NCBI RefSeq assembly: GCF_030463565.1
Contig: NC_134675.1
Span: 18,993,862-19,057,861 of the forward strand
Direction: 5' to 3'
Source: Pelecanus crispus
Taxonomy: Eukaryota; Chordata; Aves; Pelecaniformes; Pelecanidae
Length of the DNA: 64,000 bases
The notes below the pieces were generated by a model. That model searched no databases. It saw nothing but the letters and a program-made list of their open reading frames with translations, and had not been told where the DNA came from. Of this stretch, positions 20,751 through 64,000 are shown piece by piece. The position numbers and the translations under genes were made by a program. Position 1 is the first letter of the stretch. Each line of letters opens with the position of its first letter.

Positions 20751-20795
20751 AAGTCCCCTCCCCCCGAACAAATTGCAGATGTAGAATATGCTGCT

Positions 20796-26771: not shown

Positions 26772-27072
26772 CCTAACCTCTGCCGGTTAAGTAACAACCG
26801 AGCACCTCTTCTTTTGTGTTCACAGGTACTCCAACTGCCAGAATATTGCACCTGGAATCAAGGACTCCCCTATACTGATCTAGAGTGCCCTCAAGGATTA
26901 GTAATTTTTATTTGTTGGGCATTTCTGTTTCTAGCCCTCGTACTTGTCTGGAAGCCAAGATTTTAATCCCCAAATGTGGTGTTTTGGTTTCCAGATAAGC
27001 ATGAGAATCGGAAGCAATACCACTGTTTTTCCATAGTTGAAATCACTTGTGTGTGTTTATTGAGATGTTAAT

Positions 27073-28934
27073 TTGGAATGTATTCTAAGCATAGTTGCAT
27101 TTATCACTATTAATGTTCTGTTTGTACTATTGATTGTTAAGTGCATCAATATGAGCCTATTATTATGTGTGAATAGTTTTAGGAAGGTGTGTATAAGTTT
27201 AACATGTATATATGCGTTAGGTATGGTAACTGCGTGTGTGATCCCTAGAGATTATGATCGAAGAAGTAAGAGAACGTCAGAAATGCTGCAAGAAAATACA
27301 GCTTTTATGCTGTTACAAGGATTTCTTAGGATGATGAATTGGACCGAGGGTACTACTTGCCTCATGATGCCAATAACCCCTGTGGAGGGACTCCCTTTTT
27401 CGGTAATTCCACTTGACCTGAGCGGAGCACTATCTGATTTATGGAAAAGAAATGACACATTAACACAAGACTTAACATGGATGGGTGTAGAGAATACTAC
27501 TTCTTTTAATTCTATATATCCTTTGGACCTTAACCTTAGCAACATATGGAATACCAATTGCACTATGCAATACTGGCCACAAAACCCCTGGATAAATTCA
27601 TACAATTCACCTGCAAATATCAGTTGCACTGAGGTGCCTTGGCTTAACCAGCCTCCTCGACCACTCTGGGGCCTACCCATTACATTCAAATATTGTGTCC
27701 CAATAAACGCTGAATGGTGTATTGAGTTACTCTCTAAGTATGGATCTGAATGTGGCCCACAATCTAAATAACTTGCATATGGACCACTTCTGATCATCAA
27801 AAACTTTTTAAAAAATGGGTGAGGAGACCTCAATGTACCACACCACTGAGACCAGTCAGACTGTGGAATTGTGCCAACAAGATAAATTGCTCCAATATTG
27901 ATGATTATCTATGGGTATGGTTTGCCTCAGACCTCTATCATGCCTTAAGGAGTATATGTCTGTGTCATAATTATAGTGCTCCGATCCCTGAGCCAGCACT
28001 AGGTTGTAAAAAGGAGGTGGATCCTGACCGCATTACCATCTGGTCAGTCGATAATGCTAGTAAATGTAGAATTCCTACAAGACATTATGAGAATGGACAC
28101 TCTTTGTGTAGTGAAATAGAAAACAGTACATGCGCCACTCTAATGTTACCTGTACCACCTGAAACCGTATGGGTATGTTCTGATGGACAGGTATCAGATT
28201 ACATTCAACCCTATTGGGATGGGTTAGAATGCACTGTAGGACTTCCAAGTTTATGTCCCATAATAGCTTTTAATTATACTCAGTCATTAATACTACCAAG
28301 AGGGTACAGAACCAACAGAAGCGAATTACCCCCTATAAGTTTTCCAAGTTATTATACAACGGGAACGAAGACAGATTTAGGAATGCGAGTATTTTGGGGG
28401 TTTTGGACGGCGATAGTTAAAAATCGATTATATATAGAAAATCTAACATGGCAAGTGGAGGCTCTAGCCAATTGGACGCGGACAGCCATTGAGGCTAGCA
28501 ACACCCAACTACAAGCAACCTCACAGATGACCTTACAAAATCGATTAGCATTGGACATGATGCTACTGAAGGAGAATGGCCTTTGTGGATGGCTGAATAC
28601 CACCTATCCCAACGAAACCTGTTGTATGTCAGTTCCAAATGTATCCACTACCTTGTGTCACACTATAAGCGAAATGTGAAAAATTGTGGACCAGACCCAC
28701 AAGCTCCACAAACGGATGAAACCAAGAGACTGGCAAAGGACTGGGTGGATTTCAAAAGTTTTCAGTTGGTTTGGATTAGAAATTAGTGGATGGATTCAAA
28801 GTTTAATCCAGTATGCATTAATGTTTATCATAATGATTATTATTGTTAGTATTGGTTTGTCATGTGTGAAATCTATGATAACTAGAGCCATAACTATGCA
28901 TGTTAAGATGCTTCAGGTCTATGATCCTGAATAA
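27073..28934 (+). pseudogene. env remnant with gamma-type transmembrane features
   Basis: The surface part (27073-27771) begins with a hydrophobic leader and has many N-glycosylation sequons. A frameshift near 27772-27818 leads to a second frame (27819-28679). This carries the rest of the ectodomain, with a segment resembling the LQNR...LD immunosuppressive-type region near 28537, then a C followed eleven residues later by CC (about 28590-28630). TGA at 28677-28679 ends it just before an in-frame anchor segment. The hydrophobic membrane anchor and short tail are at about 28780-28934. No product containing the whole protein is possible. Confidence 0.8.
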
Positions 28935-32971: not shown

Positions 32972-33544
32972 TGTCCTGGTTTCGGCTGGGATAGAGTTAA
33001 TTTTCTTCCTAGTAGCAGGCATAGTGCTGTGTTTTCGATTTAGTAGGAGAAGAATGTCGATAGCACACTGATGTTCTTAGTTGTTGCTAAGTACTGCTTA
33101 TGCTAGTCAAGGACTTTTCAGCTTCCCATGCTCTGCCAGGTGCACAAGGAACTGGGAGGGGGCACAGCCAGAATAGTTGATGCAAACTGACCAAAGGGAC
33201 ATTCCATACCATATGACATCATGCTCAGTACATGAACTGGGGGGGAGTTGGCCGGGGAGCAGCGATCGCTGCTCAGGAACTGTCTGGGTATCGGTTGGCG
33301 GGTGGTGAGCAATTGCATTGTGCATCACTTGCTTTGTGTATTGTTATTATTATTATCATTATTATATTGTTATTATTATCATTATTTTTTACCTTATTTC
33401 AATTATTGAACTGTTCTTATCTCAACCCAGGAGTGGTTTTTTTCACTCTTACTCCTCCGATTCTCTCCCCCATCCGATCGGGGCAGGGGAAGTGAGCGAG
33501 CGGCTGCGTGGTGCTTAGTTGCTGGCTGGGGCTAAACCACGTCA
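32972..33544 (+). repeat. 5' LTR of copy B
   Basis: A 573-bp LTR, TGTCCTGG to GTCA. U3 contains TGACATCA (about 33214-33221). The TATATAAA box of sister LTRs is altered here to TACATGAA (about 33229-33236), so its core promoter is likely weakened. An ATT-rich microsatellite lies at about 33340-33390. Confidence 0.94.
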
Positions 33545-33552
33545 GTCCTTTT

Positions 33553-33570
33553 TGGCGCCCAACGTGGGGC
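33553..33570 (+). promoter_or_regulatory. Primer binding site, tRNA-Lys1,2 type
   Basis: TGGCGCCCAACGTGGGGC, eight bases after the 5' LTR, is the sequence complementary to the tRNA-Lys1,2 3' end, as used by foamy viruses. Copy C has the same site with one change (59474-59491). Confidence 0.85.
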
Positions 33571-33637
33571 ACAAAGGGTTTGAGATAATAACAGATTAAC
33601 CAGAGTGTATTAAGGATTCTGTTAACAGTTACCGGTC

Positions 33638-34603
33638 ATGATATTAGTTCATCTGATCTGCGCCATGTTCTTTTCTTGGCTGTGCATATTAAAGCTTGTT
33701 GTCAGTTTGTGCATTGCGCTATGCTCTGCAGTGATTAAGGATGTTTTGCTTGGGAGGTTCCTTATCAAAACCCTGACCTTGAGCATTCTTTGGTATTTGG
33801 GTTTCATACACAAGTCATTACTGTACTTCGGGTACTACCTCATGGAGAGAGTTAGCAATTATACCTTTTCCTCGGAGAGGTTTGTTGTAGAGGAAATACA
33901 GAATGGCACCTTCACTACCTTCTTCTATAACGCTTCCTCCCTCATTACAGTAACTTTTCAGTATCTTGAACATCCCTGGGCAGTTAAGATAGTTCTATTG
34001 ATACTTCTTGGGAATATTGTTTTGGTTTTGACAAAGGTTAGTAAGCAATTTAAGAATATCATCCAGAGATCTGCCCCAAGGCTGGAGAGTTATGACTGGC
34101 AGGGTGTGCGGGACAGTATGGGCAAGTACATAGGATGGTAGGCAACTCCAGTGTTTTGGAACTTCACCCCTGAACAAGTGCAGAATCCTGAAGAACTAGT
34201 AAAGTATTTGGGAAAAGTATGTTGTCACCCTGGTGACTCCAAAGAGACACAAATCATTGCAACATGCTGGGGACTGGCCCATGCTTATAGAGCCCTGTTC
34301 AACACTATTCAGTACCCTCAAGGGAAAGAGAGGGTCTCTGGATCTGATGACAAAACAACAGGCACTGTGGCTACTCCAAGCCCAGTGACAGGCACTGCAG
34401 CTACTCCAACTACAGCCACAGGCACTACAGCTACTACAACCCCCACCACAGGTACTGCAGCCACTCCAACCCCAGTGACAGGCACCGTGGCTAAACCAGA
34501 GAATCAACCTGCACCAGTATCAGTTGCCCCTATAAAAAAGAAGAAACACACAAGAAAATCAGCTCGTTTAGTAAGGGATGAAGATGAACCAGGGCCATCA
34601 TGA
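33638..34603 (+). pseudogene. Pre-gag membrane-glycoprotein leader (copy B)
   Basis: The frame starts at ATG 33638. It encodes hydrophobic segments near residues 2-32 and 40-68, a loop with three N-glycosylation sequons, and a third hydrophobic segment near 114-132. A TAG at 34139-34141 interrupts it; copy C has Trp there. After the stop the same frame continues (34151-34603) with a conserved region containing W-N-F-T, a Thr/Ala/Pro repeat and a Lys/Arg-rich tail. It ends TGA at 34601-34603, in frame with gag. I do not recognise the family. In layout it resembles the glycosylated, membrane-anchored Gag leader of gammaretroviruses, without evident sequence similarity. Confidence 0.75.
34358..34498 (+). 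repeat. 30-bp tandem repeat in leader (Thr/Ala/Pro-rich)
   Basis: Four full 30-bp units and a partial fifth, each starting ACAGGCACT or similar, encode TGTAATPTP-like decapeptides. The composition suggests a mucin-like, O-glycosylated or flexible linker. The copy C array (58546-58686) has the same number of units. Confidence 0.85.
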
Positions 34604-35608
34604 GAACAGGAGGAGGAAGAACCCATAAATGAGATGGTGACCACCCAATCCCTATCCCTGAGTGAGCTGCGAGATATGCGAAAAGATTTCAGTCGTCATC
34701 CAGGCGAGCACATCATCACCTGGCTGCTCCGATGCTGGGATAACGGGGCCAGTAGCCTGGATTTAGAGGGTAAGGAAGCTAAGCAGCTGGGATCCCTTTC
34801 TAGGGAAGGGGGCATTGACAAAGCAATTGGAAAAGGGGCAAAAACGTTCAGCCTCTGGAGGAGACTTCTGTCAAGCGTGAAGGAAAGGTATCCCTTCAAG
34901 GAGGATGTTATATCTCACCCAGGCAAATCGACGACCATAGAGAAGGGTATCCAGTACTTGAGGGAATTAGGCGTGCTGGAGGTGATTTATAGTGACCTGA
35001 ATGATGAGCAGTTACCCAAAGACCCAGATGAAGTCAGGTGCACACGACCCATGTGGCGGAAGGTGGTACAGAAAGCACCAGCACTGTATGCCAACTCATT
35101 GGCAATACTGGCCTGGAAAGATGACGAGGTACCAACAGTGGATGAAGTGGCTAGACGACTCCAGGAATATGAAGAAAGTATCTCTTCCTCCCTAAGGGCC
35201 TGTGTCTCGGATGTGGAAAAACTGTCTGAAAAACTCAGAGAGGATATGTCCTACTCCCCACCTGTACGGACCAGTATCTCAGCCATTAGGAGTCAACGTC
35301 CTTATGCTCAAGAGAGAGGATGGAGAGGATACACACCAAGGGGCACCCTGTGGTTTTACCTGCATGATCACGGAGAGGACATGAGGAAGCGGAATGGGAA
35401 ATCCACCTCGAACCTAGAGACACAGGTGCGTGAGTTAGAAGTAAAAACTATTACAAAAGGGTGTTCTCCCAGGAAAACTGCAGCTCCAGTTTCCAGTGAG
35501 CAGTTCCCCAGACAGAGGAAGAGGGCTAATTTTACTTCCAATCTTAATCAAGGGACTCTTCATTCACATTTACAAGGAGTGAACAAGGAATACTGTGACC
35601 AGGACTAG
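34604..35608 (+). pseudogene. gag (capsid and tail) of copy B
   Basis: It is open from the codon after the leader TGA to the TAG at 35606-35608; the first Met is at 34634 (324 codons). It encodes a helical capsid-like protein (GEHIITWLLRCWD, AKTFSLWRRLL and PMWRKVV segments), then a Pro/Arg/Lys-rich tail with no intact CCHC zinc knuckle. No internal stop is seen in this copy. The TAG is also present in copies A and C, and the protease frame follows in register. I call it Gag from position and helical content; I know no close named relative. Confidence 0.8.
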
Positions 35609-38600: not shown

Positions 38601-38793
38601 AGTCCCTGTAGTGCACATAAAAAATATGCTGGGGAAGACAGCCTGGGTTATTCCTGCCTCAGGCAAAGGCAAACCCATTTGTGGGATTGCTTTTGCTCAA
38701 GGACCTGGGTGCACTTGGTGGGCGATGCGAAAAGATGGAGAAGTCCAATGTTTACCTCAAGGGGATTTGATTTTGGGTGAAAATAGTCAATGA
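35609..38793 (+). pseudogene. pro-pol of copy B
   Basis: Protease (DTGA-type site near 35718, here altered downstream), then RT with LPQG and the catalytic YIDD (about 36544). RNase H (about 37455-37850) has TDGS and YTDS and an intact glutamate-bearing helix. Integrase (about 37920-38793) has H-H/C-x2-C zinc residues, the QIDY and SDNG core motifs and a C-terminal domain ending GENSQ. Breaks: TAG near 35702, TGA at 36212-36214 and 37052-37054 (both CGA in copy A), a 1-nt loss near 37370, TAA near 38116 and TAG near 38278. The frame ends at 38791-38793. Confidence 0.92.
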
Positions 38794-39269
38794 ACTGAAC
38801 TGTATGATGTTAATTGCTCTATAATACTATATGTTATCTCTTAACTGTATGTTAATATCATCATATATTATAATTTTAATATAATAATATAGTATGTTAA
38901 TGTTAAGTATATAATACTGTATGTTATGGTTGCTGTATGCCACATCAATGGTATTACAGTGAGAATTGCCCAGCTTAATGAAAATAAACTTTGATGAAAC
39001 TGTGTTGGAATGAGAAGTGGCTTCAGCATGCAACAGTCCAACACCACACACCACCTCTTCTGCTCTGAAAGACTGTGATGACAGATGGAACCCAAAGTCA
39101 TGGGCTAAATGAACTCAATGGACATTTTAGAGGGATGGGCCATAGACGAAGGGAATGATATCTGTGTGTATATATCAAGATAGGGAAAGTGGTGGTGATT
39201 AATTAGAATGCATTGGAAAGGGGTAGTACCTGTGCATGACGTAGATGGTATAGAATAAGGGGTGGATAC
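38794..39269 (+). other. AT-rich non-coding stretch and polypurine tract (copy B)
   Basis: No env-like frame. CTGTATGTTA-like words repeat near 38825-38940. It ends in the purine-rich AATAAGGGGTGGATA tract (39254-39268) next to the LTR. It is collinear with 3503-3985. Confidence 0.78.
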
Positions 39270-39830
39270 TGTCCTGGTTTTGGCTGGGATAGAGTTATTT
39301 TTCTTCCTAGTAGCAGGCATAGTGCTGTGGTTTGGATTTAGTAGGAGAAGAATGTTGATAACACACTGGTGTTTTAGTTGTTGCTGAGTACTGCTTATGC
39401 TAGTCAAGGACTTTTCAGCTTCCCATGCTCTGCCAGGTGCACAAGGAACTGGGAGGGGGCACAGCCAGAAGAGTTGATCCAAACTGACCAAAGGGACATT
39501 CCATACCATATGACATCATGCTCAGTATATAAACTGTGGGGGGTTGGCTGGGGAGCAGCGATTGCTGCTCGGGAACTGTCTGGGTATGGTCTCAGCAGGT
39601 GATGAGCAATTGCATTGTGCATCACTTGCTCTGTATATTATTATCATTATTATATTGTTATTATCATCATTACTATTTTACTTTATTTCAATTATTAAAC
39701 TGTTCTTGTCTCAACCCAGGAGTGTTTCTCACTCTTACTCCTCCGATTCTCTCCCCCATCCCATCGGGGTAGGGGGAGTGAGTGAGCGGCTGCATGGTGC
39801 TTAGTTGCTGGCTGGGGCTAAACCACGGCA
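39270..39830 (+). repeat. 3' LTR of copy B
   Basis: A 561-bp LTR, TGTCCTGG to CGGCA, followed by the target duplication GACCT (39831-39835). It contains TGACATCA (39511-39518) and TATATAAA (39526-39533). Confidence 0.94.
39526..39533 (+). promoter_or_regulatory. LTR TATA box (copy B, 3' LTR)
   Basis: TATATAAA preceded by a CRE/AP-1-like TGACATCA at 39511-39518. This is intact here, whereas the 5' LTR has TACATGAA at the matching place. Confidence 0.6.
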
Positions 39831-39835
39831 GACCT

Positions 39836-41427
39836 TCATCAGCTTTGGCTGCTGGTGAGAAGCAGTCACCAAAGGAGATATTTTATAAGCAGGCAATAAG
39901 TCTTTACTGTCCTCCCAGAGACAGGTCCTGTGCTTGCTACTAGTCTTCAGTTAGTGCCCATTGCATAGAAAAACTAAGGGCTGACATAGACAGCCAGCCA
40001 GAATATACTATCTCATCACCATAGGTTTAGAGTGATTTAAGTGGCTTCCTAGAAACCATTCTGACTTCTCAGAAACTCTAAATACCTCCCTATAAGGAGT
40101 CTTTAAATAAAATAAAATAATGTAAAATTAAATAGTGAGTGAAGCTACCCACAGGGCATCCTGGAGACAAGAACCAAGTATTTGCATCATGACATTCATC
40201 ATACCATGAAGGCTTAAAACAGCAAGATTTAATTTATCCGAGCAGAGATTGGTATGAAACTGTAGATTCTAGGAGAGGGTATGAGAGAAATGAAAACCAT
40301 TCTGGTCAGAGAGTAACTGGAGGAAGGAGATAGGAAGAGGCACATCCACATAATATAAAGGACATGGCTATTTCCCAGTGGCCATGAAATCCATGTTTAG
40401 CACTTAAATCAATGGCCTTGTTTCCAACGGTAACTTGCAGCAGTTCCTAAATATCTCCTCAACATTGAATTGCTTACAATTTAGCATCAAAAAAGGCAGG
40501 CTTTTTTCACTGCCTATTTTTAGGCATCCAATTTCTAGACCTTTTCATAACTATTTTAGGACCCAGAAGAAACCTGAAACTTGTAACGATGTCTTCCCAG
40601 ACCTGTATGCTACTGCTGATGCCACAGAGGAAATACACATTTCTTCCTAGGATATTTATTTCCTTTCCTCCATGAACAGTAATTCACAATTTAAAATAAG
40701 AAACTCTAAGATAAATGCCAACTTCTCAGCTGTGACAAATTCAGACAATACTCCAAATATAAATGTCCTAAACTTTATTTTAAAAAAACCCAAACAAACA
40801 AAAACTGAACTAAAATTGAGATCTGGATCAGCTCTTCCCTGGAGTTCAGACAGTGTACAAATGCAGGGGTGTGGCTCATCTCTGAAATTAGCATGTGAAA
40901 AGCTATTTTTATAAGCATAGCAGCAGCTTAGATAACACGGCTAACAACTCGCTTAGCTCTGTTTAAAAGCAGATGGATGATTACTAATTAGGCACAATCA
41001 AAACGCGTATTGCACCCTGAAAGGTTAATATCCAGAGTGCACATCCTTCACAGCTTAAAGACTACTTGATGAAATGTTTCTGAACTGAACAAAATTATTT
41101 TCCTGTACAACTTTTATTTTGCCATATAAATGCATGACACAAAGGAACTGTGTTGACAAAATTCCTCTGTTTATTGACAAAATGAAGAGCTAAAACAAAA
41201 GAACATCCCCTTCTGCTCTGCCAAGCTGTAGCAGTCCTGATCTGCAGGCAAGAGTTTATTTTGCATGCCTATTCACCCCCTGACTCTACAAACATTGTGA
41301 AATTAGCTTTTGAAAGTACCTAATGCAGCAATGGAAATCCCCAAAAGCTCAGCCAAATTTCTGACAACAAACAGAAGGCCAGTTAAGCAAAGCGTGCCAA
41401 GCTCTTGTCAAAGGGTAGACTTCTTAC
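39836..41427 (-). other. SLC38A9 intron segment
   Basis: Unique-looking intronic DNA between provirus copy B and the exon at 41428. Only short chance frames were seen (for example 40435-40650). Confidence 0.55.
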
Positions 41428-42730: not shown

Positions 42731-45200
42731 AATAGAATATTTCAGTTGGAAGGGATATACAACGATCATCTAGTCCAACTGTCTGACCACTTCTGGGCTG
42801 ACCAAAAGTTAAAGCATGTTAGTAAGGGCATTGTCCAAATGCCTTTTAAACACTGACAGGCTTGGGGCATTGACCACCTCTCTAGGAAGCTTGTTCCAGT
42901 GTTTGACCACCCTCTTTGTAAAGAAATGTTTCCTAATGTCAAGTCTGAACCTCCCCTGGCGCAGCTTTGAACCATTCCCATGCATCCTGTCACTGGATAC
43001 CAGGCAGAAGAGATCAGCACCTCCCTCTCCCCCTCCTCAGGAAGCTGCAGAGAGCAATGAGGTCACCCTTAAGCCTCCTTTTCTCCAAACTAGCCAAGTC
43101 CAAAGTCCTCAGCCACTCCTCATAGGACATGCCTTCCAGCCCTTTCACCAGCTTTGTTGCCCTCTGCTGGATGCATTCAAGAACCTTCACATCCTTCTTA
43201 AATTGTGGGGCCCAGAACTCTACACAATACCTAAGGTGAGGCCACACCAACACTGAATCATCTCTCTTGACTGGCTGGTTATACTGTGTTTAATGCACCC
43301 CAGGATGCGGTTTACCCTCTTGGCTGCCAGGGCACACTGCTGACATATTGAGCCTACTGTCAACCAGCACCCCCAGTTCCCCTTCTGCAGGGCTGCTCTC
43401 CAGCCACTCCTCTCCCAATCTATCCTTGTATTCAGTGTTACTCCATCCCAGGTGCAGAATCCAGCATTTGGACTTGTTAAATTTCATGCCACTGATGATG
43501 GCCGGATGCTCTAATTTATCTAGATCCCTCTGCAAGGCCTCTTGTCCCTTGAGAGAGTCAACAGCACCTCCCAGTTTGGTATCATCAGCCAACTTACTAA
43601 TGGTGCATTCAACTCCTGCATCCAGAACACTGACAAAAATATTGAACAGAACTGGCCCTAGAATTGAGCCCTGAGGAACACCACTAGTGACTGGTCGCCA
43701 GCCAGATGTAGCCCCATTCACTACAACTTTTGAGCCCTGCCCTTCAGCCAGTTCTTCACCCAGCACACCATGAACCTGTTCATCTCAGAGCACAGCACAG
43801 TTGGACAACTTGTCCAGAAGGATGCTGTGAGAGACAGTATCAAAAGTGTTACTAAAATCCAGAAAAACTACATCACTTCATCCACTAGGCAGGTGACCTT
43901 ATCATAGAAGGATATCAAATTAGTTAAACAGGTGTTTCCTTTTGTGAACCCATGTGGACTGTGCCTGATGATTGCATTGTCCTTTAAAGGACAGTAGTAC
44001 CCAGTATGATCTTCTCCATAATTTGTCCAGGGACTGAGGTTAGACTAACAGGTCTGTAGTTTCCTGGGTCTTCCCTCATGCCCGTCTTGTAAATTGGAAT
44101 AACATTGGCTAGCTTCCAGTCAGCAAGGACCTCCTCAGACTCCCAAGACCTTTGGCAGATGATCTAGAGGGGTCCTGCCATAGCATCCCCTAGCTCCTTC
44201 AGTACTCTGGGATGAATCCCATCAGGCCCCATGGACTTGTGAACATTCAGCTGATACAACTGCCCCTTACAGTTTCTGTGTCCACAAATGGAAAGTCACT
44301 GTTCCTGCACTCGTGGTCCTCCAACTCAGGGGACCAGGCAGCCCAAGGTCTGTCAGTATTATTAAAGACTGAGGCAAAAAAAGCATTGAATGCCTCTGCT
44401 TTTTCTTCATCCCTGTTAGTCAGGTGACCATCTTCAACAAATATCAGTCCAATGTATTCTTTAGACCTCCTCTTGCTATTAACATACTTAAAAAAACCTT
44501 TCTTGTTGTCTGACACAACCCTGGCCAGTTTCAACTCGAATTGAGCTTTGGCCTTTCATGTCTTCTCCATGCATATATGAACCACATCTCTGTAATCTTC
44601 CTGCGAAGCCTGACCTTGCTTCCAGAGCAATTTCCAGATGCAATTTCTTTTTCCTCTTGAGCTCCACGAGGAGTTCCTTGTTCAGCCAAGCTGGTCTTCT
44701 TCCCCACTCGCTTGACTTGCGACACCATGGGATTCCCTGCTCCTCTGCTTCTAAAAGGTGGTTCTTGAAAACTGACCAGCACTCGTGGACTCCTATGCCC
44801 TCAAAAGCAGATTCCCAGAGGTCACCGCTAACTAGCTCCCTGAATAGCTTAATGTTTGCTCTCTTGAAATCCAGGGTAGCAACTCTTTCATCCTTTTTTC
44901 TCATTACACCAACAATTTTAAACTCAACCATTTCACAATCACTGTGGGCAAGACCGCCACCTACCATCACATCTCCCATGAGTCCTTCTCTATTCACAAA
45001 TAGCAAGTCTAGGAGGGCATCTTTCCTAGTTGGCTCACTGAGTGCTTGTGACAAGAAGTTATCTCCCACAAACTTCAAGAATTTCCAAGACCTGCTTGTC
45101 ACAGAAGTATGATATTCCCAGTTGTGGTAATGCCCATGAGGTATTACCCAACTGACCAGAGTCCAGGACAGACGTGTCTGCCAGGGTGAGTCACGAAGCA
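42731..45200 (-). mobile_element. Older, diverged CR1 LINE
   Basis: A minus-strand CR1 of a different and more decayed subfamily. It runs from a worn 3' tail near 42731 to about 45200. ORF2 is split by many frameshifts and stops: the RT part at 43014-43766 (S-K-L-A-D-D-T-K box, an F-to-L change from FADD) and the endonuclease C-terminal region plus linker at 44247-45201. This is the only CR1 here that reaches back into the endonuclease. The 5' limit is approximate and nearly touches the next exon. Confidence 0.88.
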
Positions 45201-47125: not shown

Positions 47126-49112
47126 TAATCACAGAATCACAGAATCATTTAGGTTGGAAAAGACCTTTAAGATCATCCAGTCCAACCATTAAACTAACAT
47201 TACCAAATCCACCACTAAACCAATTAAGGGCAGAGTAGCAATTAATTTCATGTTTCCTGGCTTGGTGGCTGGATTATTTTTAATGAAAGTAAAAACTAGG
47301 AATCATTAAGATTGGAAAGGACCTCTAAGACCATGAGTCCAACCATCAACCCAACAACACCATGCCTACTAAACCATGTCCCAAAGTGCCACATCTACCC
47401 GTTTTTTGAACACTTCCAGGGATGGGGACTCCACCACCTCTCTGGGCAGCCTGTTCCAATGCTTGACTACCCTTTCCGTGAAGAAATTGTTCCTAATACC
47501 CAATCTAAACCTCCCCTGGCGCAGCTTGAGCCCATTTCCTCTCGTCCTATCGCTAGTTACTTGGGAGGAGAGACCAACACCCACCTCACTACAACCTCCT
47601 TTCAGGTAGTTGTAGAGAGCGATAAGGTCTCCCCTCAGCCTCCTCTTCTCCAGCCTAAACAACCCCAGTTCCCTCAGCCGCTCCTCATAAGACTTGTGCT
47701 CCAGACCCTTCACCAGCTTCGTTGCCCTTCTCTGGACACGCTCCAGCACCTCAATGTCTTTCTTGTATTGAGGGGCCCAAAACTGGACACAGTATTCCAG
47801 GTGAGGCCTCACCAGCACCAAGTACAGGGGGACAATCACCTCCCTGCTCCTGCTGGCCACACTATTCCTGATACAAGCCAGGATGCTGTTGGCCTTCTTG
47901 GCCACCTGGGCACACTGCTGGCTCATGTTCAGCCAGCTGTCGACCAACACCCCCAGGTCCTTTTCGGCCAGGCAGCTTTCCAGCCACTCTTCCCCAAGCC
48001 TGTAGCGTTGCATGGGGTTGTTGTGACCCAAGTGTAGGACCCAACACTTGGCCTTGTTGAACCTCATACAGTTGGCCTCGGCCCATCGGTCCAGCCTGTC
48101 CAGGTCCCTCTGCAGGGCCATCCTACCCTCCAGCAGATCGACACTCCCACCCAACTTGGTGTCATCTGCAAACTTGCTGAGGGTGCACTCAATCCCCTCA
48201 TCCAGATCGTTGATAAAGATATTAAACAAGACTGGCCCCAAAACAGAGCCCTTGGGAACACCACTCGTGATGGGCCACCAACTGGACTTAACTCCATTCA
48301 CCACTACTCTCTGGGCTCGGCCACCCAACCGGTTTTTTACCCAGCGAAGACTATGCCCATCCAAGCCATGAGATGCCAGCTTCCTAAGGAGAATGCTATG
48401 GGAGACAGTGTCAAAGGCTTTACTAAAGTCCAGGTAGATGAAATCCACAGCCTTTCCTTCATCCTTCATCCACCAGGTGGGTCACCAGGTCATAAAAGGA
48501 GATCAGGTTGGTCAAGCAGGACCTGCCTTTCATGAACCCATGCTGGCTGGGTCCAATCCCCCGGTTGGCCTGCACATGCCAGTTGAGCGCACTCAATATG
48601 AACTGCTCCATAATCTTTCCCAGCACCGAGGTCAGGCTGACAGGCCTCTAGTTCCCCGGGTCCTCCTTCCGGCCCGTTCTTGTAGATGGGTGTCACATTG
48701 GCAAGCCTCCAGTCATCAGGGACCTCCCCTGTTAACCAGGACTGCTGATAGATGATGGAAAGTGGCTTGGTGAGCTCCTCTGCCATCTCCCTCAGTACTC
48801 TCAGGTGGATTCCATCCAGCCCCATAGACTTGTGTCAGGTCATTAACTGCTTCCTCCTGGACTATGAGGACTCCATTCTGCTCCCCATCCCTGTCTTCCA
48901 GCTCAGGGGGCTGAGTACCCTGGGGATGCCTGGTCTGGCTATTAAAGAGAGAGGCAAAGAAGGCATTAAGTACCTCAGCCTTTTCCTCATCATTGGTGAC
49001 AATGTTCCCCCCTGCATCCAGCAAAGAATGGAGATTCTCCTTGGTTCTCTTTTTATCGTTGATTGTACAAAAAAATCTTTGTATGTTATTGTAGTTACCT
49101 TTCCAGCTAAGA
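47126..49112 (-). mobile_element. CR1 LINE with composite 3' tail
   Basis: A minus-strand CR1 from tail 47126 to about 49112. ORF2 RT is open from 48469 to 47369 (366 codons: YLDFSKAFD motif A and FADD present), with the upstream part (48490-49024) frameshifted. The 3' UTR has the two-module tail (about 47150-47195 and 47310-47350), as in the copy at 9872. Confidence 0.92.
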
Positions 49113-53102: not shown

Positions 53103-53366
53103 TGTCGTGCTTTAACCCCAGCTGGCAACTAAGCTCCACACAGCCACTTGCTCACTCCACCCACAACAGGATGGGAGAGAGAGGCTATGTCCCCTCCCAA
53201 CTTCTTGTGGTGTGAGAAGCAGAAAAGGCCTTGACTCTGTATAAGCACTTCTCAGCAATAACTAAAACATCTCTGTATTATCAACACTGTTTTCAGCACA
53301 AATCCAAAACATAGCCCCATACTAGCTACTATGAAGAAAATAACTATCCCAGCCAAAACCAGCACA
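53103..53366 (-). repeat. Internally deleted solo LTR of the ERV-L family
   Basis: On the minus strand both ends match the 32972-type LTR (CCCAGCCG-like start region, worn to CCAGCCAAAACCAGCACA on the plus strand, and TGTCGTGCTTTAACCCC at the other end). Only about 264 bp remain of about 570: the promoter and microsatellite middle are deleted. Confidence 0.8.
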
Positions 53367-55044
53367 GACAATCATTTTTCTTCTTAGTGACATGACCAAG
53401 CTGAAGAAACTGTTTTACACAGCCTTTCACTTGTTTCTTGGCATTCATATCTTGAAATAGGGTTCTGAATGCCTGGCTAAGACAAGGAAGGAATGACCTT
53501 CAGCAGTTATGGAAGAATGAACAAGCAGATTTAATGCTAGCTAGGGACCTGGGCGGGGGGGGGGGGGGGGGGGGAAGAAGGGGAATGCCAGGTTTTGAGC
53601 AGGCCTCTTCACCAAACGTACACGGAATACACTAGCTAAGCAGTTTATTCTGCTTATTATTGTGCCAGATCAATTTCAGTTCAACTAGAGAGCTGAATCA
53701 ACACAAGGGGGGTGATAGAAGAAGAAAAAGAATAAGTAGCTGCAAGACTACTGCAACTGTCATGTGAGCACACTTAAATCAGTTGAATTTCGCATCAGTA
53801 ACTTCACTCAATTAACTATTATCTGTTGTTTACTTATTGAGTTGTTATTCCTGTTGCTACAGTGCCTTACCATGATTTCACAGATTAGGTCAGATCATAC
53901 TAGAAACATGGAACAACTCTGGAACAACTCTTTTGATCCCCATCTTGCTACAGTAATTCAAAACTCATCCTAATGTTTCAAGTTATCGTTGTTTTCTTCT
54001 CCAATTCTACACTCTTCATCCTATCAATAGTTTGCATCCCATGTGTAAAACTGTTAGTACAGTGCCTGATGTGACTAGGAAACTAAAAATGCACAAACCC
54101 ACTAAAGAAGTCCTAAGAAGGTGCATATGTCTGAACTTTGCCTTAAGTAAATAAGTAATTTTTAAAGAAGGATAAAATACTCTTATTTCTAAGAACAGAA
54201 GGAGTGATCCAATTCAATAGTACAGGACACAACTCCTTGGAGCTAACTGGTCATGCAATTTTGCCTGTTGTAAAGGGGGGGGGGGACGACACGACGACCC
54301 AGCTAAAGACCTAGCCCCTGGTCTCTCTTTCCAGGTCTCCTAAAACAAGAAACTTCACACTATATGTTCATGCAGTGCCACTGTTTATATGATTGTGACA
54401 TCTCACACAGTGATTTGTAACATCACTGGCAGGGGAGGAACAAACAGCCACCAAAACAACATTCGAGAAAGAAAGAGAGACATACTAGAGAGCTAATGGG
54501 TGTTTAAAAGTGAAGAGCTAAGATTATGGACTAAATCCTGAGAGACTGGAAGTATGGGAAAAGCATACTCATAAATTAGGGTGAATGAGCTATTTCATTT
54601 AAGCAAGACAATGTGTGGAGAACTTACAGCACCTTTACCAGTCAGCCTGTCTACAGTTTGTCATTTGTAACTGCTACTGAAATAGGCATGATCTGAAAAT
54701 GGTGCAGCTAGAACTTATTATAATATAGGTGAAACAGGACTATGGCAAGCTCTCTGTCACATGATATACGCTGGAGATCCTTCTGATGGGCACTCCTCCT
54801 CTTATCCACAGTGCTGATACTGTCTCCTAATTAAGGTACATCACCGGGAAAGGGATTCCTTGTCACTTTGTCACAAGGGATCCTTCCTGAGCCTCCACAT
54901 GCAACATCAGACAGCATTTTCTCACTTTATTTACATCACAAAGGTGTTAAAAGGTGAATGAGACAGTCCTTCATGAATTGCTTTAAAAAAAAAATCTTAA
55001 ACCCATCATATATATGTTTCTTTACTGCATTTTAACTATCTTAC
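53367..55044 (-). other. SLC38A9 intron segment with poly-G tracts
   Basis: Intron containing an uninterrupted run of about 20 G at 53555-53574 and a shorter G run near 54277-54286. No recognised mobile element or exon. Confidence 0.6.
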
Positions 55045-56178: not shown

Positions 56179-57414
56179 ATCCATGAGTCAGTATAGAGAT
56201 AAAGGACTGGCCACTTTTCTCATTCAGCAATATCTAAAGCCAGCTGGATGGCTTTCACCTCTGCAAACTGACTCGACTCCCCTTCTCCTTCAGCAGTTTC
56301 TGCGACTTGCCGTATAGGACTCCATACAGCAGCTTTCCACCTCCGATGCTTTCCCACAAGATGACAGGACCCATCAGTGAACAGGGCATATTGCTTCTCA
56401 TTTTCTGGCAATTTATTATACAGTGGGGCCTCTTCAGCACGTGTCACCTCCTCCTCTGGTGATATTCTGAAGTTTTTGCCTTCTGGCCAGTCCATGATCA
56501 CTTCCAAGATTCCTGGGCGACTGGGGTTTCCTATTTGAGCCCGTTGTGTGATCAATGCAACCCACTTACTCCATGTAGCATCAGTTGCATGATGTGTAGA
56601 GGGGACCCTCCCTTTGAACATCCAGCCCAACACCGGCAGTCGGGGTGCCAGCAGGAGCTGTGCTTCAGTACCAACCACTTCTGAAGCAGCTCGAACCCCT
56701 TCATATGCTGCCAATATCTCTTTCTCAGTTGGAGTATAGCGGGCTTCGGATCCTCTGTATCCCCGACTCCAAAACCCTAGGGGTCGACCTCGAGTCTCCC
56801 CTGGTGCTTTCTGCCAGAGGCTCCAGGTAGGGCCATTCTCCCCGGCTGCAGTGTAGAGCACATTTGTAATATCCTGCCCTGCCCGGACTGGCCCAAGAGC
56901 TACTGCATGAACTATCTCCCGTTTAATTTGTTCAAAGGCTTGTTGTTGCTCAGGACCCCATTTGAAATCGTTCTTCTTCCGGGTCACTTGATAGAGAGGA
57001 CTTATGATCTGACTGTAATTTGGAATATGCATTCTCCAAAAACCCACAACGCCTAAGAAAGCTTGAGTTTCCTTTTTGCTAGTTGGTAGGGTCCTTGAAA
57101 TACCCTCTCCTGAGGTAGTCTATGCCAAGGATGCACGGAGCCTCTGGGCCAGTCACAATGGGGTGCTTCTCCCACTCATTCCCAGTTAGGCTCACTTCAG
57201 CTTCCAGTACAGTTAGCTGTTGGGATCCCCCTGTCACTCCAGAAATACAAATGGGTTCTACCCCTCTATAGTTTGATGGCATTAGGGTACACTGTGCACC
57301 GGTGTCCACTAGAGCCTTATACTCCTGTGGGTCTGACGTTCCAGGCCATCAAATCCACACAGTCCAGGAAAACCAGTTGTCCCTTTCCTCCACCTGGCTG
57401 GAGGCAGGGCCCCT
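56179..57414 (-). pseudogene. pro-pol remnant of copy C, RT core deleted
   Basis: Protease at about 57309-57090 with an intact DTGA site. The linker upstream of it has Tyr (TAT) where copies A and B have TAG. At about 57090 the sequence jumps from the equivalent of 35934 to about 36756 of copy B, removing LPQG and YIDD. The remainder (57047-56220) covers late RT, the connection and RNase H TDGS, and ends at the YTDS region. Confidence 0.9.
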
Positions 57415-58440
57415 CTAACACTGGTCACAGTATTCCTTGTTCACTCCTTGTAAATGTGAATCAAAAGTCCCTTGATTAAGATCTGGAGTAGAATTAGCCC
57501 TCTTCCTCTGTCTGGGGAACTGCTCACTGGAAACTGGAACTGCAATTTTCCTGGGAGAACTGCCTTTTGTAATTGTTTTTCCTTGCAACTCACGCATCCG
57601 TTCCTCTAGGGTCGAGGTGGGTTTTCCATCCCACTTCCTCATGTCCTCTCCGTGGTCACGCAGATAAAATCACAGGGTGCCCCGTGGTGTGTATCCTCTC
57701 CATCCTCTTTCTTGAGCATAAGGACATTGACTCCTAAGGGCTGAGATACTGGCCCGTACAGGTGGGGAGTAGGACAGATTCTCTCTGAGTTGTTGGAAGT
57801 CTCGGCCTATTTTTTCAGACAGTTTTTCCACAGCCGAGACACAGGCCCGTAGGGAGGAAGAGATACTTTCTTCATATTCCCGGAGTCGTCTAGCCACTTC
57901 ATCCACTGTTGGTGCCTTGTCATCTTTCCAGGCCAGTATTGCCAACAAGTTGGAATACGATGCTGGTGCGCTCCGTACCACCTTCCGCCACATGGGTTGT
58001 GTGCACCTGACTTCATCTGGATCGTTGGGTAACTGCTCATCATTCAGGTCACTATAAATCACCTCCAGCACGCCTAATTCCCTCAAGTACTGGATACCCT
58101 TCTCTATGGTGGTCCATTTGCTTGGGCAGTATAAAACATCCTCCTTGAACAGATACCTTTCCTTCACGCTTGACAGAAGTCTCCTCCAGAGGCTGAGCGT
58201 TTTTGCCCCTTTTCCAATTGCTTTGTCAATGCCCCCTTCCCTAGAAAGGGATCCCAGCTGCTTAGCTTCCTTACCCTCTAAATCCAGGCTACCGGCCCTG
58301 TTATCCCAGCATCAGAGCAGCCAGGTGATGATGTGCTTGCCTGGATGACGACTGAAATCTTTTCGCATATCTCGCAGCTCACTCAGGGATAGGGATCGAG
58401 TATTTACCATCTCATTTATGGGTTCTTCCTCCTCCTGTTC
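57415..58440 (-). pseudogene. gag of copy C
   Basis: Same frame as the leader, directly after its TGA (58441-58443). The capsid-like part is interrupted by a TGA in the LLRCW segment (58311-58313 region), then open in 58167-57670 and 57642-57415 with one break between. It ends at TAG 57415-57417, the same stop as copies A and B. Confidence 0.8.
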
Positions 58441-59406
58441 TCATGATGGCCCTGGTTCATCTTCATCCCTTACTAAACGAACTGATTTTCTTGTGTGTTT
58501 CTTCTTTTTTATAGGGGCAACTGATACTGGTTCGGGTTGGTTCTCTGGTTTAGCCACGGTGCCTGCCACTGGGGTTGGAGTGGCTGCAGTACCTGTGGTG
58601 GGGGTTGTAGTAGCTGTAGTGCCTGTGGCTGTAGTTGGAGTAGCCGCAGTGCCTGTCACTGGGCTTGGAGTAGCCACAGTGCCTGTTGTTTTGTCATCTG
58701 ATCCAGAGACCCTCTCTTTTCCTTGAGGGTACTGAATAGTGTTGAACAGGGCTCTATAAGCATGGTCCAGTCCCCAGCATGTTGCAATGAGTTGTGTCTC
58801 TTTGGAGTCACCAGGGTGACAACATACTTTTCCCAAATACTTTACTAGTTCTTCAGGATTCTGCACTTGTTCAGGGGTGAAGTTCCAAAACACGGGAGGT
58901 CCCCACTGCCCTAGGTACTTGCCCATACGATCCCACACATCCTTCCGCTCATAACTCTCCAGCCTTGGGGCGGATCTCTGGATGATATTCTTAAATTGCT
59001 TACTAACCTTTGTCAAAACCAAAACAATATTCCCAAGAAGTATCAATAGAACTATCTTAACTGCCCAGGGATGTTCAAGATACTGAAAAGTTTCTGTAAT
59101 GAAGGAGGAAGCGTTATAGAAGAAGGTAGTGAAGGTGCCATTCTGTATTTCCTCCACAAGAAACCTCTCCGAGGAAAAGGTATAATTGCTAACTCTCTCC
59201 ATGAGGTAGTACCCGAAGTACAGTAATGACTTGTGTATGAAACCCAAATACCAAAGAATGCTCAAGGTCAGGGTTTTGATAAGGAACCTCACAAGCAAAA
59301 CATCCTTAATCACTGCAGAGCATAGTGCAACGCACAAACTGACAACAAGCTTTAACATGCACAGCCAAGAAAAGAACATGGCGCAGATCAGATGAACTAA
59401 TATCAT
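58441..59406 (-). CDS. Pre-gag membrane-glycoprotein leader ORF, 321 codons (copy C)
   Basis: An uninterrupted 321-codon frame between the primer site and gag, the best-preserved copy of this protein. Hydrophobic segments: residues about 2-32, 40-68 and 114-132. N-glycosylation sequons N74 (NYT), N89 (NGT) and N98 (NAS) cluster in the loop between the second and third segments. A conserved soluble region follows (about 134-230, with W-N-F-T and a CC pair), then a Thr/Ala/Pro decapeptide repeat (241-287), a basic KKKHTRK tail and an acidic end. It ends TGA, in frame with gag. I recognise no named family. Topology and position suggest a membrane-anchored glycosylated Gag leader. Expression is not shown. 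Confidence 0.75.
   Translation of the reverse strand: MILVHLICAMFFSWLCMLKLVVSLCVALCSAVIKDVLLVRFLIKTLTLSILWYLGFIHKSLLYFGYYLMERVSNYTFSSERFLVEEIQNGTFTTFFYNASSFITETFQYLEHPWAVKIVLLILLGNIVLVLTKVSKQFKNIIQRSAPRLESYERKDVWDRMGKYLGQWGPPVFWNFTPEQVQNPEELVKYLGKVCCHPGDSKETQLIATCWGLDHAYRALFNTIQYPQGKERVSGSDDKTTGTVATPSPVTGTAATPTTATGTTATTTPTTGTAATPTPVAGTVAKPENQPEPVSVAPIKKKKHTRKSVRLVRDEDEPGPS
58546..58686 (-). repeat. 30-bp tandem repeat in copy C leader
   Basis: Four to five 30-bp units encoding TGTAATPTP-like decapeptides, the same unit count and order as in copy B. Confidence 0.85.
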
Positions 59407-59473: not shown

Positions 59474-59491
59474 GCCCCACGTTGGGCACCA
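59474..59491 (-). promoter_or_regulatory. Primer binding site of copy C
   Basis: On the minus strand, TGGTGCCCAACGTGGGGC. It differs by one base from the tRNA-Lys1,2-type site of copy B, probably a CpG decay (CG to TG). Confidence 0.8.
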
Positions 59492-59499
59492 AAAAGGAC

Positions 59500-60074
59500 T
59501 GACGTGGTTTAGCCCCAGCCAGCAACTAAGCACCACACAGCCGCTCGCTCACTTCCCCTGCCCCGATCAGATGGGGGAGAGAATCGGAGGAGTAAGAGTG
59601 AAAACAACCACTCCTGGGTTGAGATAAGAACAGTTTAATAATTGAAATAATGTAAAAAATAATGATAATAATAACAACATAATAATGATGATAATAATAA
59701 TAACAATATACAAAGCAAGTGATGCACAATGCAATTGCTCACCACCCGACGACCGATACCCAGGCAGTTCCCGAGCAGCTATCGCTGCTCCCCGGCCAAC
59801 CCCCCCCCAGTTTATATACTGAACATGACGTCATATGGTATGGAATACCCCTTTGGTCCGTTTGGATCAACTATCTCGTCTGTGCCCCCTCCCAGTTTCT
59901 TGTGCACCTGGCAGAGCATGGGAAGCTGAAAAGTCCCTGACTAGCGTAAGGGCTACTTAGCAAAAACTAAAACATCAGCATGTTATCAGCATTCTTCTCC
60001 TACTAAATCCAAAACACAGCACTATGCCAGCTACTAGGAAGAAAATTAACTCTATCCCAGCCGAAACCAGGACA
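59500..60074 (-). repeat. 5' LTR of copy C
   Basis: A 575-bp LTR in minus orientation, ending on the plus strand with CCAGGACA at 60074. It has a perfect CRE, TGACGTCA (59826-59833), and the TATATAAA box (plus TTTATATA at 59811-59818). Confidence 0.94.
59811..59833 (-). promoter_or_regulatory. LTR core promoter: TATA box and perfect CRE
   Basis: The palindromic cAMP-response element TGACGTCA (59826-59833) lies seven bases upstream of TATATAAA (59811-59818, minus strand). Other LTR copies here have TGACATCA or TGATGTCA, so this copy may keep the ancestral CpG form. Confidence 0.62.
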
Positions 60075-61515
60075 GACAGAAAAAAAGGTGCATGCAACCA
60101 TACCCTTAGTCCAGATGGTATTATATGGAAAGAGCTTCCCCTACTCATTTTTCTAATCGTTTTTTTTCAGAAGAGGCTCTGTGGGATGCTTTTTCCATGT
60201 TTTATTTTAAATAAGGGAATCTCTGGAAAACGGTTTAATTCTCACTGTCTACAGTCATCTCTAGTAGTATTTTCTTTCCAGTACACTTCTGTGCTACTTT
60301 ACTGCTCTGCCACACCAGATATTCTCTAGTTTCTGCCACTTCACCGGTACAAGAGTATTAGATAGCAGTTTCCTTATATTTATGTATATACACATGCACA
60401 CAGAAAATGCCCATCAGCCTGGAAATTTAATTAGTGTGTCTCTGGTTAAAATTTGCTTCTGCTGCATGTGGGTGTATTATGCATACAGAGAATCAACTAG
60501 GGCAATAGGCCTCAGACTTTTTAAATGCGATTAACAGCAGCTTGTTTCTCATAAAGAAAGCAAAATTCTTGTGGGAAGAAAACTATTTTTTGCTTCTTCA
60601 TTTTGATTTATGACACCCTGAATCACTATTGAGTTTCTCATATTTATTGTATACAACAAACAGAAGATGCTTTTAAAAAATCACTCATCACCTCCTCGCT
60701 TCACCACTGTTCTGTGTTGCTACTTAAAAAAAGTACCTAGTGTGAAGCCATCAAAAGAACTGATAGCTCTTACAGAATTAGAGCACTTCAAAATTAGTTA
60801 TTATTAGTTATTATAAATATGTTTCCTCTGTACATAAAAGTGTTTTATTTCTGTTTCATAAAACAAAACCAGAACAAAAGCATGGGACACTGTGTTAAAA
60901 AAAGAAAAAAGACAGGATATAATTGGCTTACAGTCCTTGCATTCTGTACGTACTAATTTCTAGACTGTCTAGACCTTAGGAAATCAATTTGTTCCCACCT
61001 AAATTGTATAAAGTTTTTAAGAAGTCATCTGAATGTACTAGAATTAAATACCGTAGCCTGCTTAGGATAACTTAGAAACACATGGCTGGAAGACGCTATT
61101 GTGTCAAACCTACATCCTATTACCCATTTTATAACTTAGTAATTAAGTAGCCACAATGAAAGTTAGGACAAGAATCCAATGATTAAAGTTATCACAGAGC
61201 AAACAACTGGAAACAGTTAAGAGATAAAACAACATGCCAATCTCATGGAAAAGCAGGACTTTTTCCTAGAAAAGGAACTGTTTTGATCATTCTGAAGTTT
61301 TCTTATAAGAATCAGAGTTATTTGGTTTAGAATAATTTAGGATTGAAGTGCTAATCTTATTAAAAAAAGACCCAAAACAAAGTCTAAAATGAAATGGCCT
61401 TAAGAACATATGAATTAGGTCAGCTGTAAAATACACCAGTCATTAACCAATAAAGTAATGCGTGTCCTTCAGGGATGGTGGGAACTAATTAAACTTTAAG
61501 AGGTATAAGTGGCAA
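60075..61515 (-). other. SLC38A9 intron segment
   Basis: Unique-looking AT-rich intron. I searched it for the missing SLC38A9 exons and found none. Confidence 0.55.
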
Positions 61516-63426: not shown

Positions 63427-63992
63427 TGTCCTGGTTTTGGCCGGGACAGAGTTAATTTTCTTCCTAGTAGCAGGCATAGTGCTGTGTTTTCGATTTAGTA
63501 GGAGAAGAATGTTGATAACACACTGATGTTTTAGTTGTTGCTAAGTATTGCTTATGCTAGTCAAGGACTTTTCAGCTTCCCATGCTCTGCCAGGTACACA
63601 AGACACTGGGAGGGGGCACAGCCGAGATAGTTGATCCAAACTGACCAAAGGGACATTCCATGCCATATGACATCATGCTCAGTATAAAAACTGGGGGGAG
63701 CTGGCCTGGGGGCAGCGATCGCTGCTTGGGAACTGTCTGGGTATCGGTCGGCGGGTGGTGAGCAATTGCATTGTGCATCACTTGCTTCGTATATCATTAT
63801 TATTATTGTTATTATATTGTTATTATTATAATTACTCTTTTACTTTATTTCAGTTATTAAACTGTTCTTATCTCAACCCAGGAGTTTTTCTCACTCTTAC
63901 TCCTCCGATTCTCTCCCCCATCCCATTGGGGTAGGGGGAGTGAGCGAGCGGCTGCGTGGTGCTTGGTTGCATTCTGGGGCTAAACTACGACA
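63427..63992 (+). repeat. Solo LTR of the ERV-L family
   Basis: A 566-bp LTR from TGTCCTGG to ACGACA with TGACATCA and a TATAAAAA box (63683-63690). The flanks CTCTT (63422-63426) and CTCTG (63993-63997) agree in four of five bases, a probable decayed target duplication, so it looks like a solo LTR. The window ends eight bases later, so a following internal region can be excluded only from those few bases. Confidence 0.85.
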
Positions 63993-64000
63993 CTCTGTAA

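What the first reader, a model, noticed from the sequence alone, without database searches (positions are those of the whole stretch)
58441..59406. A membrane-glycoprotein leader encoded in frame before gag in an ERV-L-like virus
Copies B and C carry a leader of about 320 codons between primer site and gag. It has three hydrophobic segments, three clustered N-glycosylation sequons (N74, N89, N98), a mucin-like repeat and a basic tail. ERV-L elements are generally regarded as env-less with a simple gag-pol. A glycosylated membrane-anchored leader in register with gag recalls gammaretroviral glyco-Gag by layout, without sequence similarity that I can see. It could represent a little-described accessory or Gag-targeting module.
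Basis: partly seen in the sequence, partly recalled or inferred. Interest (0 to 1): 0.87.

Follow-up and report, generated by a model that had tools for sequence, protein, structure and literature searches.

The report
Membrane-anchored Gag in bird retroviruses
The "leader" is not a separate accessory gene: it is the front part of the Gag protein of a bird endogenous retrovirus family with many young copies, and it looks like a built-in membrane anchor that carries conserved glycosylation sites.

Summary
The 321-codon ORF is real. It lies on the minus strand in copy C; copy B carries it with one TAG. It has three hydrophobic segments, a Pro/Thr repeat and a basic tail. It is not a leader "before gag" but the N-terminal part of Gag. 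In the same genome 72 of 124 scored leader copies sit in one open frame of at least 660 codons, and 99 of 120 scored gag-core copies in a frame of at least 630. The stop that splits leader from core in B and C is CGA in 73 of 82 copies, TGA in 8, CAA in 1: CpG decay. Gags of duck, manakin, raptor and ibis share the layout at 22% or more identity in the membrane part, with hydropathy kept far above a neutral simulation. Sequons N74 and N89 are conserved (68 and 69 of 71 copies), N98 is not (22). Selection is purifying but modest (median dN/dS 0.56; 0.91 in the membrane part between two young lineages). Best reading: a co-translational membrane anchor of two or three spans with the Gag core in the cytosol, in place of a myristoylated matrix, for intracellular assembly. 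Glyco-Gag is not supported.

The parts
58441..59406 (-). Copy C: leader ORF, 321 codons = N-terminal part of Gag (membrane region, helical domain, Pro/Thr linker, basic tail); ends at a TGA (58441-58443) where most copies have CGA
   Evidence: junction codon
59308..59364 (-). Copy C hydrophobic segment 1 (residues 15-33)
   Evidence: Kyte-Doolittle 2.52; helix 2-33 in the model
59245..59301 (-). Copy C hydrophobic segment 2 (residues 36-54)
   Evidence: Kyte-Doolittle 1.79; helix 36-75
59179..59187 (-). Sequon N74, present in 68 of 71 distinct copies and, at that place, in 25 of 27 proteins that cover it
59134..59142 (-). Sequon N89, present in 69 of 71 distinct copies of this genome
59107..59115 (-). 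Sequon N98, present in only 22 of 71 distinct copies
59011..59067 (-). Copy C hydrophobic segment 3 (residues 114-132), followed by the basic stretch KVSKQFKNIIQR
   Evidence: helix 113-143
58723..58956 (-). Most conserved part of the leader (residues 151-228): small helical domain
   Evidence: mean identity 0.59 to P0001 in 26 proteins; model pLDDT 69-87 per block of ten
58551..58686 (-). Pro/Thr/Ala repeat, 10-residue (30-nt) unit; leader length 963 or 993 nt in different copies
58468..58512 (-). Basic tail IKKKKHTRKSVRLVR (residues 299-313)
   Evidence: alignment
57670..58440 (-). Copy C: continuation of the same frame into the Gag core, with a further TGA at 58312-58314
59474..59491 (-). 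Copy C primer binding site TGGTGCCCAACGTGGGGC
59494..60075 (-). Copy C 5' LTR
33638..34603 (+). Copy B: same leader, TAG at codon 168, ends in TGA at 34601-34603
34604..35608 (+). Copy B: Gag core ORF (334 codons), same frame as the leader
33553..33570 (+). Copy B primer binding site TGGCGCCCAACGTGGGGC
32972..33550 (+). Copy B 5' LTR
39269..39836 (+). Copy B 3' LTR (90.9% identical to the 5' LTR)

Best explanation
The leader is the N-terminal domain of the Gag polyprotein of an avian ERV-L-like family. Translation starts at the first AUG after the primer site. The first hydrophobic segment should be read by SRP, and the nascent Gag inserted into the ER membrane with two or three spans: a short N-terminus, one or two spans, a lumenal loop with the sequons (N74, N89), then the last span followed by a basic stretch, a small helical domain, a Pro/Thr linker and the capsid-like core, all cytosolic. 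The domain would take the place of a myristoylated matrix and of Env-assisted targeting in an env-less element, fix Gag to ER or secretory membranes and let particles form there, with the protease later releasing the core. Shown: one ORF, wide presence, conserved hydropathy, sequons and charge pattern, modest purifying selection. Inferred: insertion, number of spans, glycosylation, topology, site of assembly, cleavage.
For: One ORF: 72 of 124 scored leader copies lie in an open frame of 660 codons or more with no stop in the match; 99 of 120 scored core copies lie in a frame of 630 or more with no stop in the match. Junction CGA 73, TGA 8, CAA 1 of 82; of 131 held proteins with the junction motif 125 run on. 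No ATG between primer site and start in 72 of 82. Hydropathy: a window of 1.6 or more in the first ~75 residues in 27 of 27 proteins and in the last segment in 24 of 27, at 22-69% identity to P0001; a neutral simulation keeps both in 9.1% (to 30% identity) and 5.1% (to 25%) of 1000 runs each. Charge after the last segment is +3 or more in 26 of 27. Selection: N:S 262:81 among singletons, 81:44 among variants in 4 or more of 71 copies, p=0.018; stops 14 against 1. N-terminal MG in 0 of 27. Literature: ERV-L Gag listed without myristylation signal (PMC8278194, passages); intracellularised elements including mammalian ERV-L have lost env and altered the Gag N-terminus (PMC3197615, introduction); MuERV-L particles accumulate in the ER (PMC5930517, one passage).
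Against: No experiment shows insertion or glycosylation. Two separate N-terminal windows of 1.6 or more are seen in only 11 of 29 scanned proteins, some of them truncated, so the number of spans is open. The last segment is below 1.6 in P0128, P0131 and P0193; the duck and goose proteins P0154 and P0158 lack the N74 sequon, and P0154 also the basic stretch (net -1); the loop before the last segment is negative in 20, neutral in 3 and positive in 4 of 27. dN/dS of the membrane part is 0.91 between two young lineages, the shared N:S (1.84) is only modestly below the computed neutral 2.43, and the helical domain alone gives p=0.079. The relatives share ancestry, so the hydropathy count is not 27 independent cases. 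The fold models are mediocre (mean pLDDT 65 and 64) and match nothing significantly.
Confidence: 0.74

Rival explanations
1. Glyco-Gag-like accessory form: a glycosylated, extended Gag is made beside a normal leaderless Gag and acts on the host or on release rather than as the structural protein.
For: N-terminal extension in frame with Gag, hydrophobic anchor and sequons; MLV glycoGag has the same layout on paper (PMC12530543, passages). A Met with a good context (by eye) exists at the core start in this lineage (NEMV).
Against: No ATG between primer site and leader start in 72 of 82 copies. The core-start Met is present in 4 of 27 aligned proteins and the next one in 20 of 27, so neither is fully conserved. 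The charge pattern puts the core in the cytosol, opposite to type II glycoGag.
Confidence: 0.08
2. Signal-peptide reading: the N-terminus only routes Gag through the translocon; the first segment is cleaved, or Gag enters the lumen and returns, as proposed for Ty1.
For: Ty1 Gag is translocated to the ER lumen and is unstable without it (PMC3945221, passages). Residues around LCSA in copy C could be a cleavage site (by eye).
Against: The LCSA stretch is not conserved in the raptor, duck and manakin proteins (by eye), and a further hydrophobic segment with a basic flank follows.
Confidence: 0.08
3. A captured envelope-like or host glycoprotein piece, for example the herpesvirus glycoprotein C-like domain proposed inside the gag ORF of the finch TguERVL2.
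For: Boman et al. 2019 report a 137-aa alignment, E=8e-4, in the gag ORF (PMC6523648, section 3.4 read). The leader has sequons and a mucin-like repeat.
Against: Pfam scan of 19 members at E<=0.1 lists no Marek_A or foamy Env, only 4 families with one member each, one of them Mucin; with 53 members at E<=10 the first 25 of 40 families hold no envelope, and Mucin is the commonest (7 members). The gC match may be Pro/Thr composition. The finch consensus itself was not tested.
Confidence: 0.06
4. Passenger sequence without function, kept open by recent spread alone.
For: dN/dS 0.91 in the membrane part between two young lineages; the membrane part is the least conserved of the three parts compared to P0001.
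Against: Same layout in Gags of duck, goose, manakin, raptors and ibis at low identity; stops 14 among singletons against 1 among widely shared variants; hydropathy kept against the neutral simulation.
Confidence: 0.04

Closest known systems
N-terminally altered Gag of intracellularised ERVs (IAP, MusD, mammalian ERV-L/MuERV-L)
   Same: env-less element; Gag N-terminus suited to an intracellular, ER-linked cycle (PMC3197615 introduction, PMC5930517 one passage)
   Different: Here a domain of two or three spans with two conserved sequons. Whether MuERV-L Gag has spans was not tested; the primary paper (PMC2224431) is not held
MLV glyco-Gag
   Same: In-frame N-terminal extension of Gag with a membrane segment and N-glycosylation sites
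   Different: Additional CUG-started form beside normal Gag, single span, predicted type II (PMC12530543 passages); here one conserved start, more than one span, core predicted cytosolic
Avian ERVL gag ORF (TguERVL2_I_Ucy, Boman et al. 2019)
   Same: ERVL element of birds; an odd feature in its gag ORF was noticed
   Different: Described as a disrupted herpesvirus gC-like envelope domain; 'transmembrane' does not occur in the text. Identity of the two families was not tested
Foamy virus Env leader peptide (Elp) / Gag pair
   Same: Gag without myristoylation signal; a membrane-anchored leader serves ER targeting
   Different: In foamy viruses the leader belongs to Env, about 120-130 aa, type II (PMC7828637 passages); here it is part of Gag in an element without env
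Ty1 Gag
   Same: SRP/ER-linked Gag biogenesis in an LTR element
   Different: Ty1 Gag has no discernible signal or span (PMC3945221 passages)

Membership tests
Glyco-Gag (gammaretroviral) | N-terminal extension in frame with Gag with membrane segment and sequons | tested here: met
Glyco-Gag (gammaretroviral) | A second, normal Gag from its own downstream start | tested here: not met
   No fully conserved start at the core: M in 4 of 27 and 20 of 27 aligned proteins. Expression was not testable
Glyco-Gag (gammaretroviral) | Type II topology, Gag part outside | tested here: inconclusive
   Charge pattern argues for the opposite; no experiment
ERV-L / class III ERV | RT/pol affinity | tested here: inconclusive
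   RT of copy B: best solved structures are MLV-type RT (best 122.5 bits) and foamy-type Pr125Pol (119.2), nearly tied; the virus names are recalled from the entries; no tree with ERV-L made
ERV-L / class III ERV | No env between pol and 3' LTR | tested here: met
   Copy B: last integrase frame ends 38793, 3' LTR starts 39269
ERV-L / class III ERV | Gag without N-myristoylation signal and without CCHC zinc knuckle | tested here: met
   MG start 0 of 27; CCHC in 0 of 12 proteins scanned
Intracellularised ERV with ER-targeted Gag (IAP, MuERV-L) | env lost and Gag N-terminus altered for intracellular trafficking | tested here: inconclusive
   env absent in copy B and N-terminus hydrophobic, but trafficking was not tested; definition from PMC3197615 introduction
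Intracellularised ERV with ER-targeted Gag (IAP, MuERV-L) | Particles in the ER | not testable with these tools
   needs microscopy
Herpesvirus glycoprotein C (Marek_A, PF02124) | Profile match | tested here: inconclusive
   No match in 19 members at E<=0.1, none in the 25 of 40 families shown for 53 members at E<=10; the finch consensus was not tested
Foamy virus Env leader | Profile match to foamy Env | tested here: inconclusive
   None; none in the 25 of 40 families shown

The most novel reading that the evidence does not exclude
A whole, still young bird retroelement lineage builds its capsid from a Gag that is permanently a multi-span, N-glycosylated membrane protein. The hairpin of the first two long helices (in the model of copy C) may not only anchor but bend the ER membrane, reticulon-like, so that one domain does the work of matrix, Env leader and budding motif; the 12 proteins scanned show no PTAP/PSAP or YPxL motif.
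Probability: 0.25. Interest if true: 0.82.

Novelty: new variant of a known kind. Interest (0 to 1): 0.62.

Why it matters
ERV-L Gags are listed without a myristoylation signal (PMC8278194, passages), so how env-less class III Gags reach membranes is open. This family offers a concrete, testable answer, with scores of young open copies in one genome and relatives in many birds. It would add a permanently membrane-embedded Gag to the known ways of retroviral assembly, and it offers another reading of the herpesvirus-envelope hint in a bird ERVL gag.

Tried and rejected

Recalled, from no call: TGGCGCCCAACGTGGGGC as a Lys-1,2-type primer site; CR1 as the name of the LINE copies; bird groups and common names; which viruses some PDB entries come from; the positive-inside rule.

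Full report
What is there. The finding gives no strand; the ORF is on the minus strand, 58441-59406, 321 codons, while the plus strand in the frame of those coordinates has many stops. It belongs to copy C of an LTR element whose 5' LTR is 59494-60075(-) and whose primer site is 59491-59474(-). Copy B (32972-39836, +) carries the same leader at 33638-34603 with a TAG at codon 168; B and C differ at 34 of 966 positions. Copy A runs off the window start.

It is the front of Gag. In both copies the frame ends in a TGA and continues in the same frame into the Gag core. In database proteins the same junction is mostly sense: of 131 held proteins with the junction motif 125 run through (R 79, Q 39, W 2, P 2, H 2, K 1) and 6 end there or one residue later, P0001 among them. 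In the window's own genome (1.31 Gb, 310 contigs; window at C45:18993862-19057861) the leader search scored 124 of 3587 candidates and gave 161 matches; the tool calls such counts lower bounds. Of the 124 copies 72 lie in an open frame of at least 660 codons with no stop inside the match (frame lengths typed, tallied). A separate search with the core scored 120 of 3024 candidates: 99 of 120 lie in a frame of at least 630 codons with no stop inside the match, though the match itself is about 340 codons. The common frames 667, 677 and 687 are spaced by 10 codons, the length of the repeat unit. In 82 leader pieces (80 fetched plus B and C) the junction codon is CGA in 73, TGA in 8 (B and C among them) and CAA in 1: both changes are what CpG deamination gives. 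The start is ATG in 79 of 82. No ATG lies between primer site and start in 72 of 82 (one in 9, three in 1); the primer site was recognised in 63 of 82, in the other 19 the whole 120 nt upstream was looked at. Of these 82 leaders 65 join into one cluster at under 2% difference, hence "young".

How far it is conserved. The named hosts among the listed hits are birds, apart from one Klebsiella-labelled protein that I take for contamination; many hits bear no host name, and only 120 of 151 and 120 of 334 hits were listed. Proteins with the N-terminal part include ones from Anas, Anser, Manacus, Buteo, Morphnus, Accipiter and Theristicus; a third search from the Manacus protein added four passerine records, one a chimeric entry. 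Twenty-seven of the 53 proteins of alignment A2 cover the N-terminus. Against P0001 the membrane part (1-143) has mean identity 0.33 (0.22-0.69) and the helical domain (151-228) 0.59. Hydropathy of at least 1.6 is kept in the N-terminal part in 27 of 27 and in the last segment in 24 of 27; P0128, P0131 and P0193 miss it. In the 23 proteins below 35% identity 20 keep both. A neutral simulation (1000 runs each) keeps both in 9.1% at 30% identity and 5.1% at 25%; the proteins are related, so this is no formal test. Two separate N-terminal windows appear in 11 of 29 scanned proteins, some truncated, so I write two or three spans. A sequon at the N74 place is present in 25 of 27; charge after the last segment is +3 or more in 26 of 27; the loop before it is negative in 20, neutral in 3 and positive in 4 of 27. 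By the positive-inside rule the core is cytosolic and the sequon loop lumenal; this reading is mine.

Selection. For 31 leader sequences (20 fetched, 9 of the 80 first pieces, B and C) pairwise dN/dS over codons 10-228 has median 0.56 (IQR 0.47-0.66; 214 pairs with dS over 0.15). Between young lineages the parts differ: for the 667 versus the 687 type the membrane part has 0.91 and the helical domain 0.19; single pairs with very low dS exceed 1. To use old copies as a built-in control I compared variants by sharing: 142 pieces, 27 with a stop, reduced to 71 at least 2.5% apart. N:S was 262:81 among singletons, 94:45 in 2-3 copies and 81:44 in 4 or more (singleton versus 4 or more, Fisher p=0.018); membrane part 166:46 versus 61:31 (p=0.032); helical domain 85:29 versus 18:13 (p=0.079). 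These are three related tests without correction. Stops were 14 among singletons, 1 in 2-3 copies, 1 in 4 or more. Only codons one base away from the commonest were counted, others were dropped. The singleton ratio (3.23) exceeds the computed neutral 2.43, so the control may be biased by CpG decay; against 2.43 the shared ratio 1.84 is a weaker signal. So selection is purifying but modest, and the membrane part evolves fast. Sequons in the 71: N74 68, N89 69, N98 22.

Structure. The leader model (mean pLDDT 65, pTM 0.33) has helices 2-33, 36-75, 113-143 and a small helical domain 151-225; no PDB match at E<=0.001. The core model (pLDDT 64, pTM 0.55) has none either; weak rows include MLV and HIV capsid and Arc, among unrelated proteins that score as high. 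That the core is Gag therefore rests on its place between primer site and pol and on the reading of such ORFs as gag in print, not on a fold match. The ERV-L label was not proven here: the RT is about equally near MLV-type and foamy-type structures.

Mechanism. Most likely the nascent Gag is taken to the ER by its first hydrophobic segment and inserted with two or three spans; N74 and N89 become lumenal and the core stays cytosolic. This would replace a myristoylated matrix (MG start in 0 of 27; no PTAP/PSAP, YPxL or CCHC in the 12 proteins scanned; PPxY only in two, inside the core). It fits the known intracellularisation of ERVs: loss of env plus an altered Gag N-terminus, in mammalian ERV-L, MusD and IAP (PMC3197615, introduction read), and MuERV-L particles in the ER (PMC5930517, one passage). 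Everything after "one ORF with conserved hydropathy, sequons, charge" is inference.

Compared with the known. MLV glycoGag is an additional, CUG-started, single-span form (PMC12530543, passages): alike in part, not a member. Foamy viruses have a membrane-anchored Env leader (PMC7828637, passages). A frog class III ERV has polybasic stretches, and its tagged Gag gathers at the plasma membrane and in the nucleus (PMC8278194, passages). Zebrafish Bik-1 Gag reaches the membrane through its coiled-coil domain (PMC10996621, passages). In birds, Boman et al. noted a "disrupted envelope glycoprotein C" in the gag ORF of TguERVL2_I_Ucy (PMC6523648, passages and section 3.4); my Pfam scans of relatives show Mucin-like composition instead, though the finch sequence itself was not tested. 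In ten searches of open full texts I saw no listed title or abstract start that describes a multi-span Gag in bird ERVs; each listed at most 20 papers, and most subscription papers are not in that library.

Noticed in passing
window 20751-28679 (+): A second retrovirus with a protease frame (RVP, E=2.9e-8) and an env frame matching TLV_coat (E=1.9e-7), apart from the finding.
   Followed up: no
window 10116-10569, 18201-18654, 24734-25187, 47368-47821: Four copies, 94-96% alike, of a LINE reverse-transcriptase region (CR1-like by recall), with a fifth, 60-73% alike, at 42808-43256.
   Followed up: no
window 32972-33550, 39269-39836, 59494-60075: Copy B's own LTRs differ by 9.1%, more than the B and C 5' LTRs do (7.4%) and more than the B and C leaders (3.5%); recombination or conversion is possible.
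   Followed up: partly
window 33638-34603 and 58441-59406: B is the nearest relative of C's leader among the scored copies (93% versus at most 88%); the two lie inverted about 24 kb apart and share the junction TGA.
   Followed up: partly
contig C45 of the own genome (22.2 Mb, holds the window): 39 of 120 scored core copies (hand count) lie on this contig, 1.7% of the genome. The query itself comes from C45, which biases the ranking. It may be the W chromosome, called an ERV refugium in birds (PMC8310711, search listing only).
   Followed up: no
window 57089-57091 (-): Copy C lacks about 820 bp between gag and RT relative to B, and matches B no further than 56179.
   Followed up: no
window 63427-63995 (+) and 53213-53370: A further LTR at the window end and a diverged LTR fragment.
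   Followed up: no
database proteins P0190 and many Grus japonensis entries: A Gag-like protein filed under Klebsiella pneumoniae (probably contamination) and Gag-like frames named ubiquitin carboxyl-terminal hydrolase 4 (probably misnamed).
   Followed up: no
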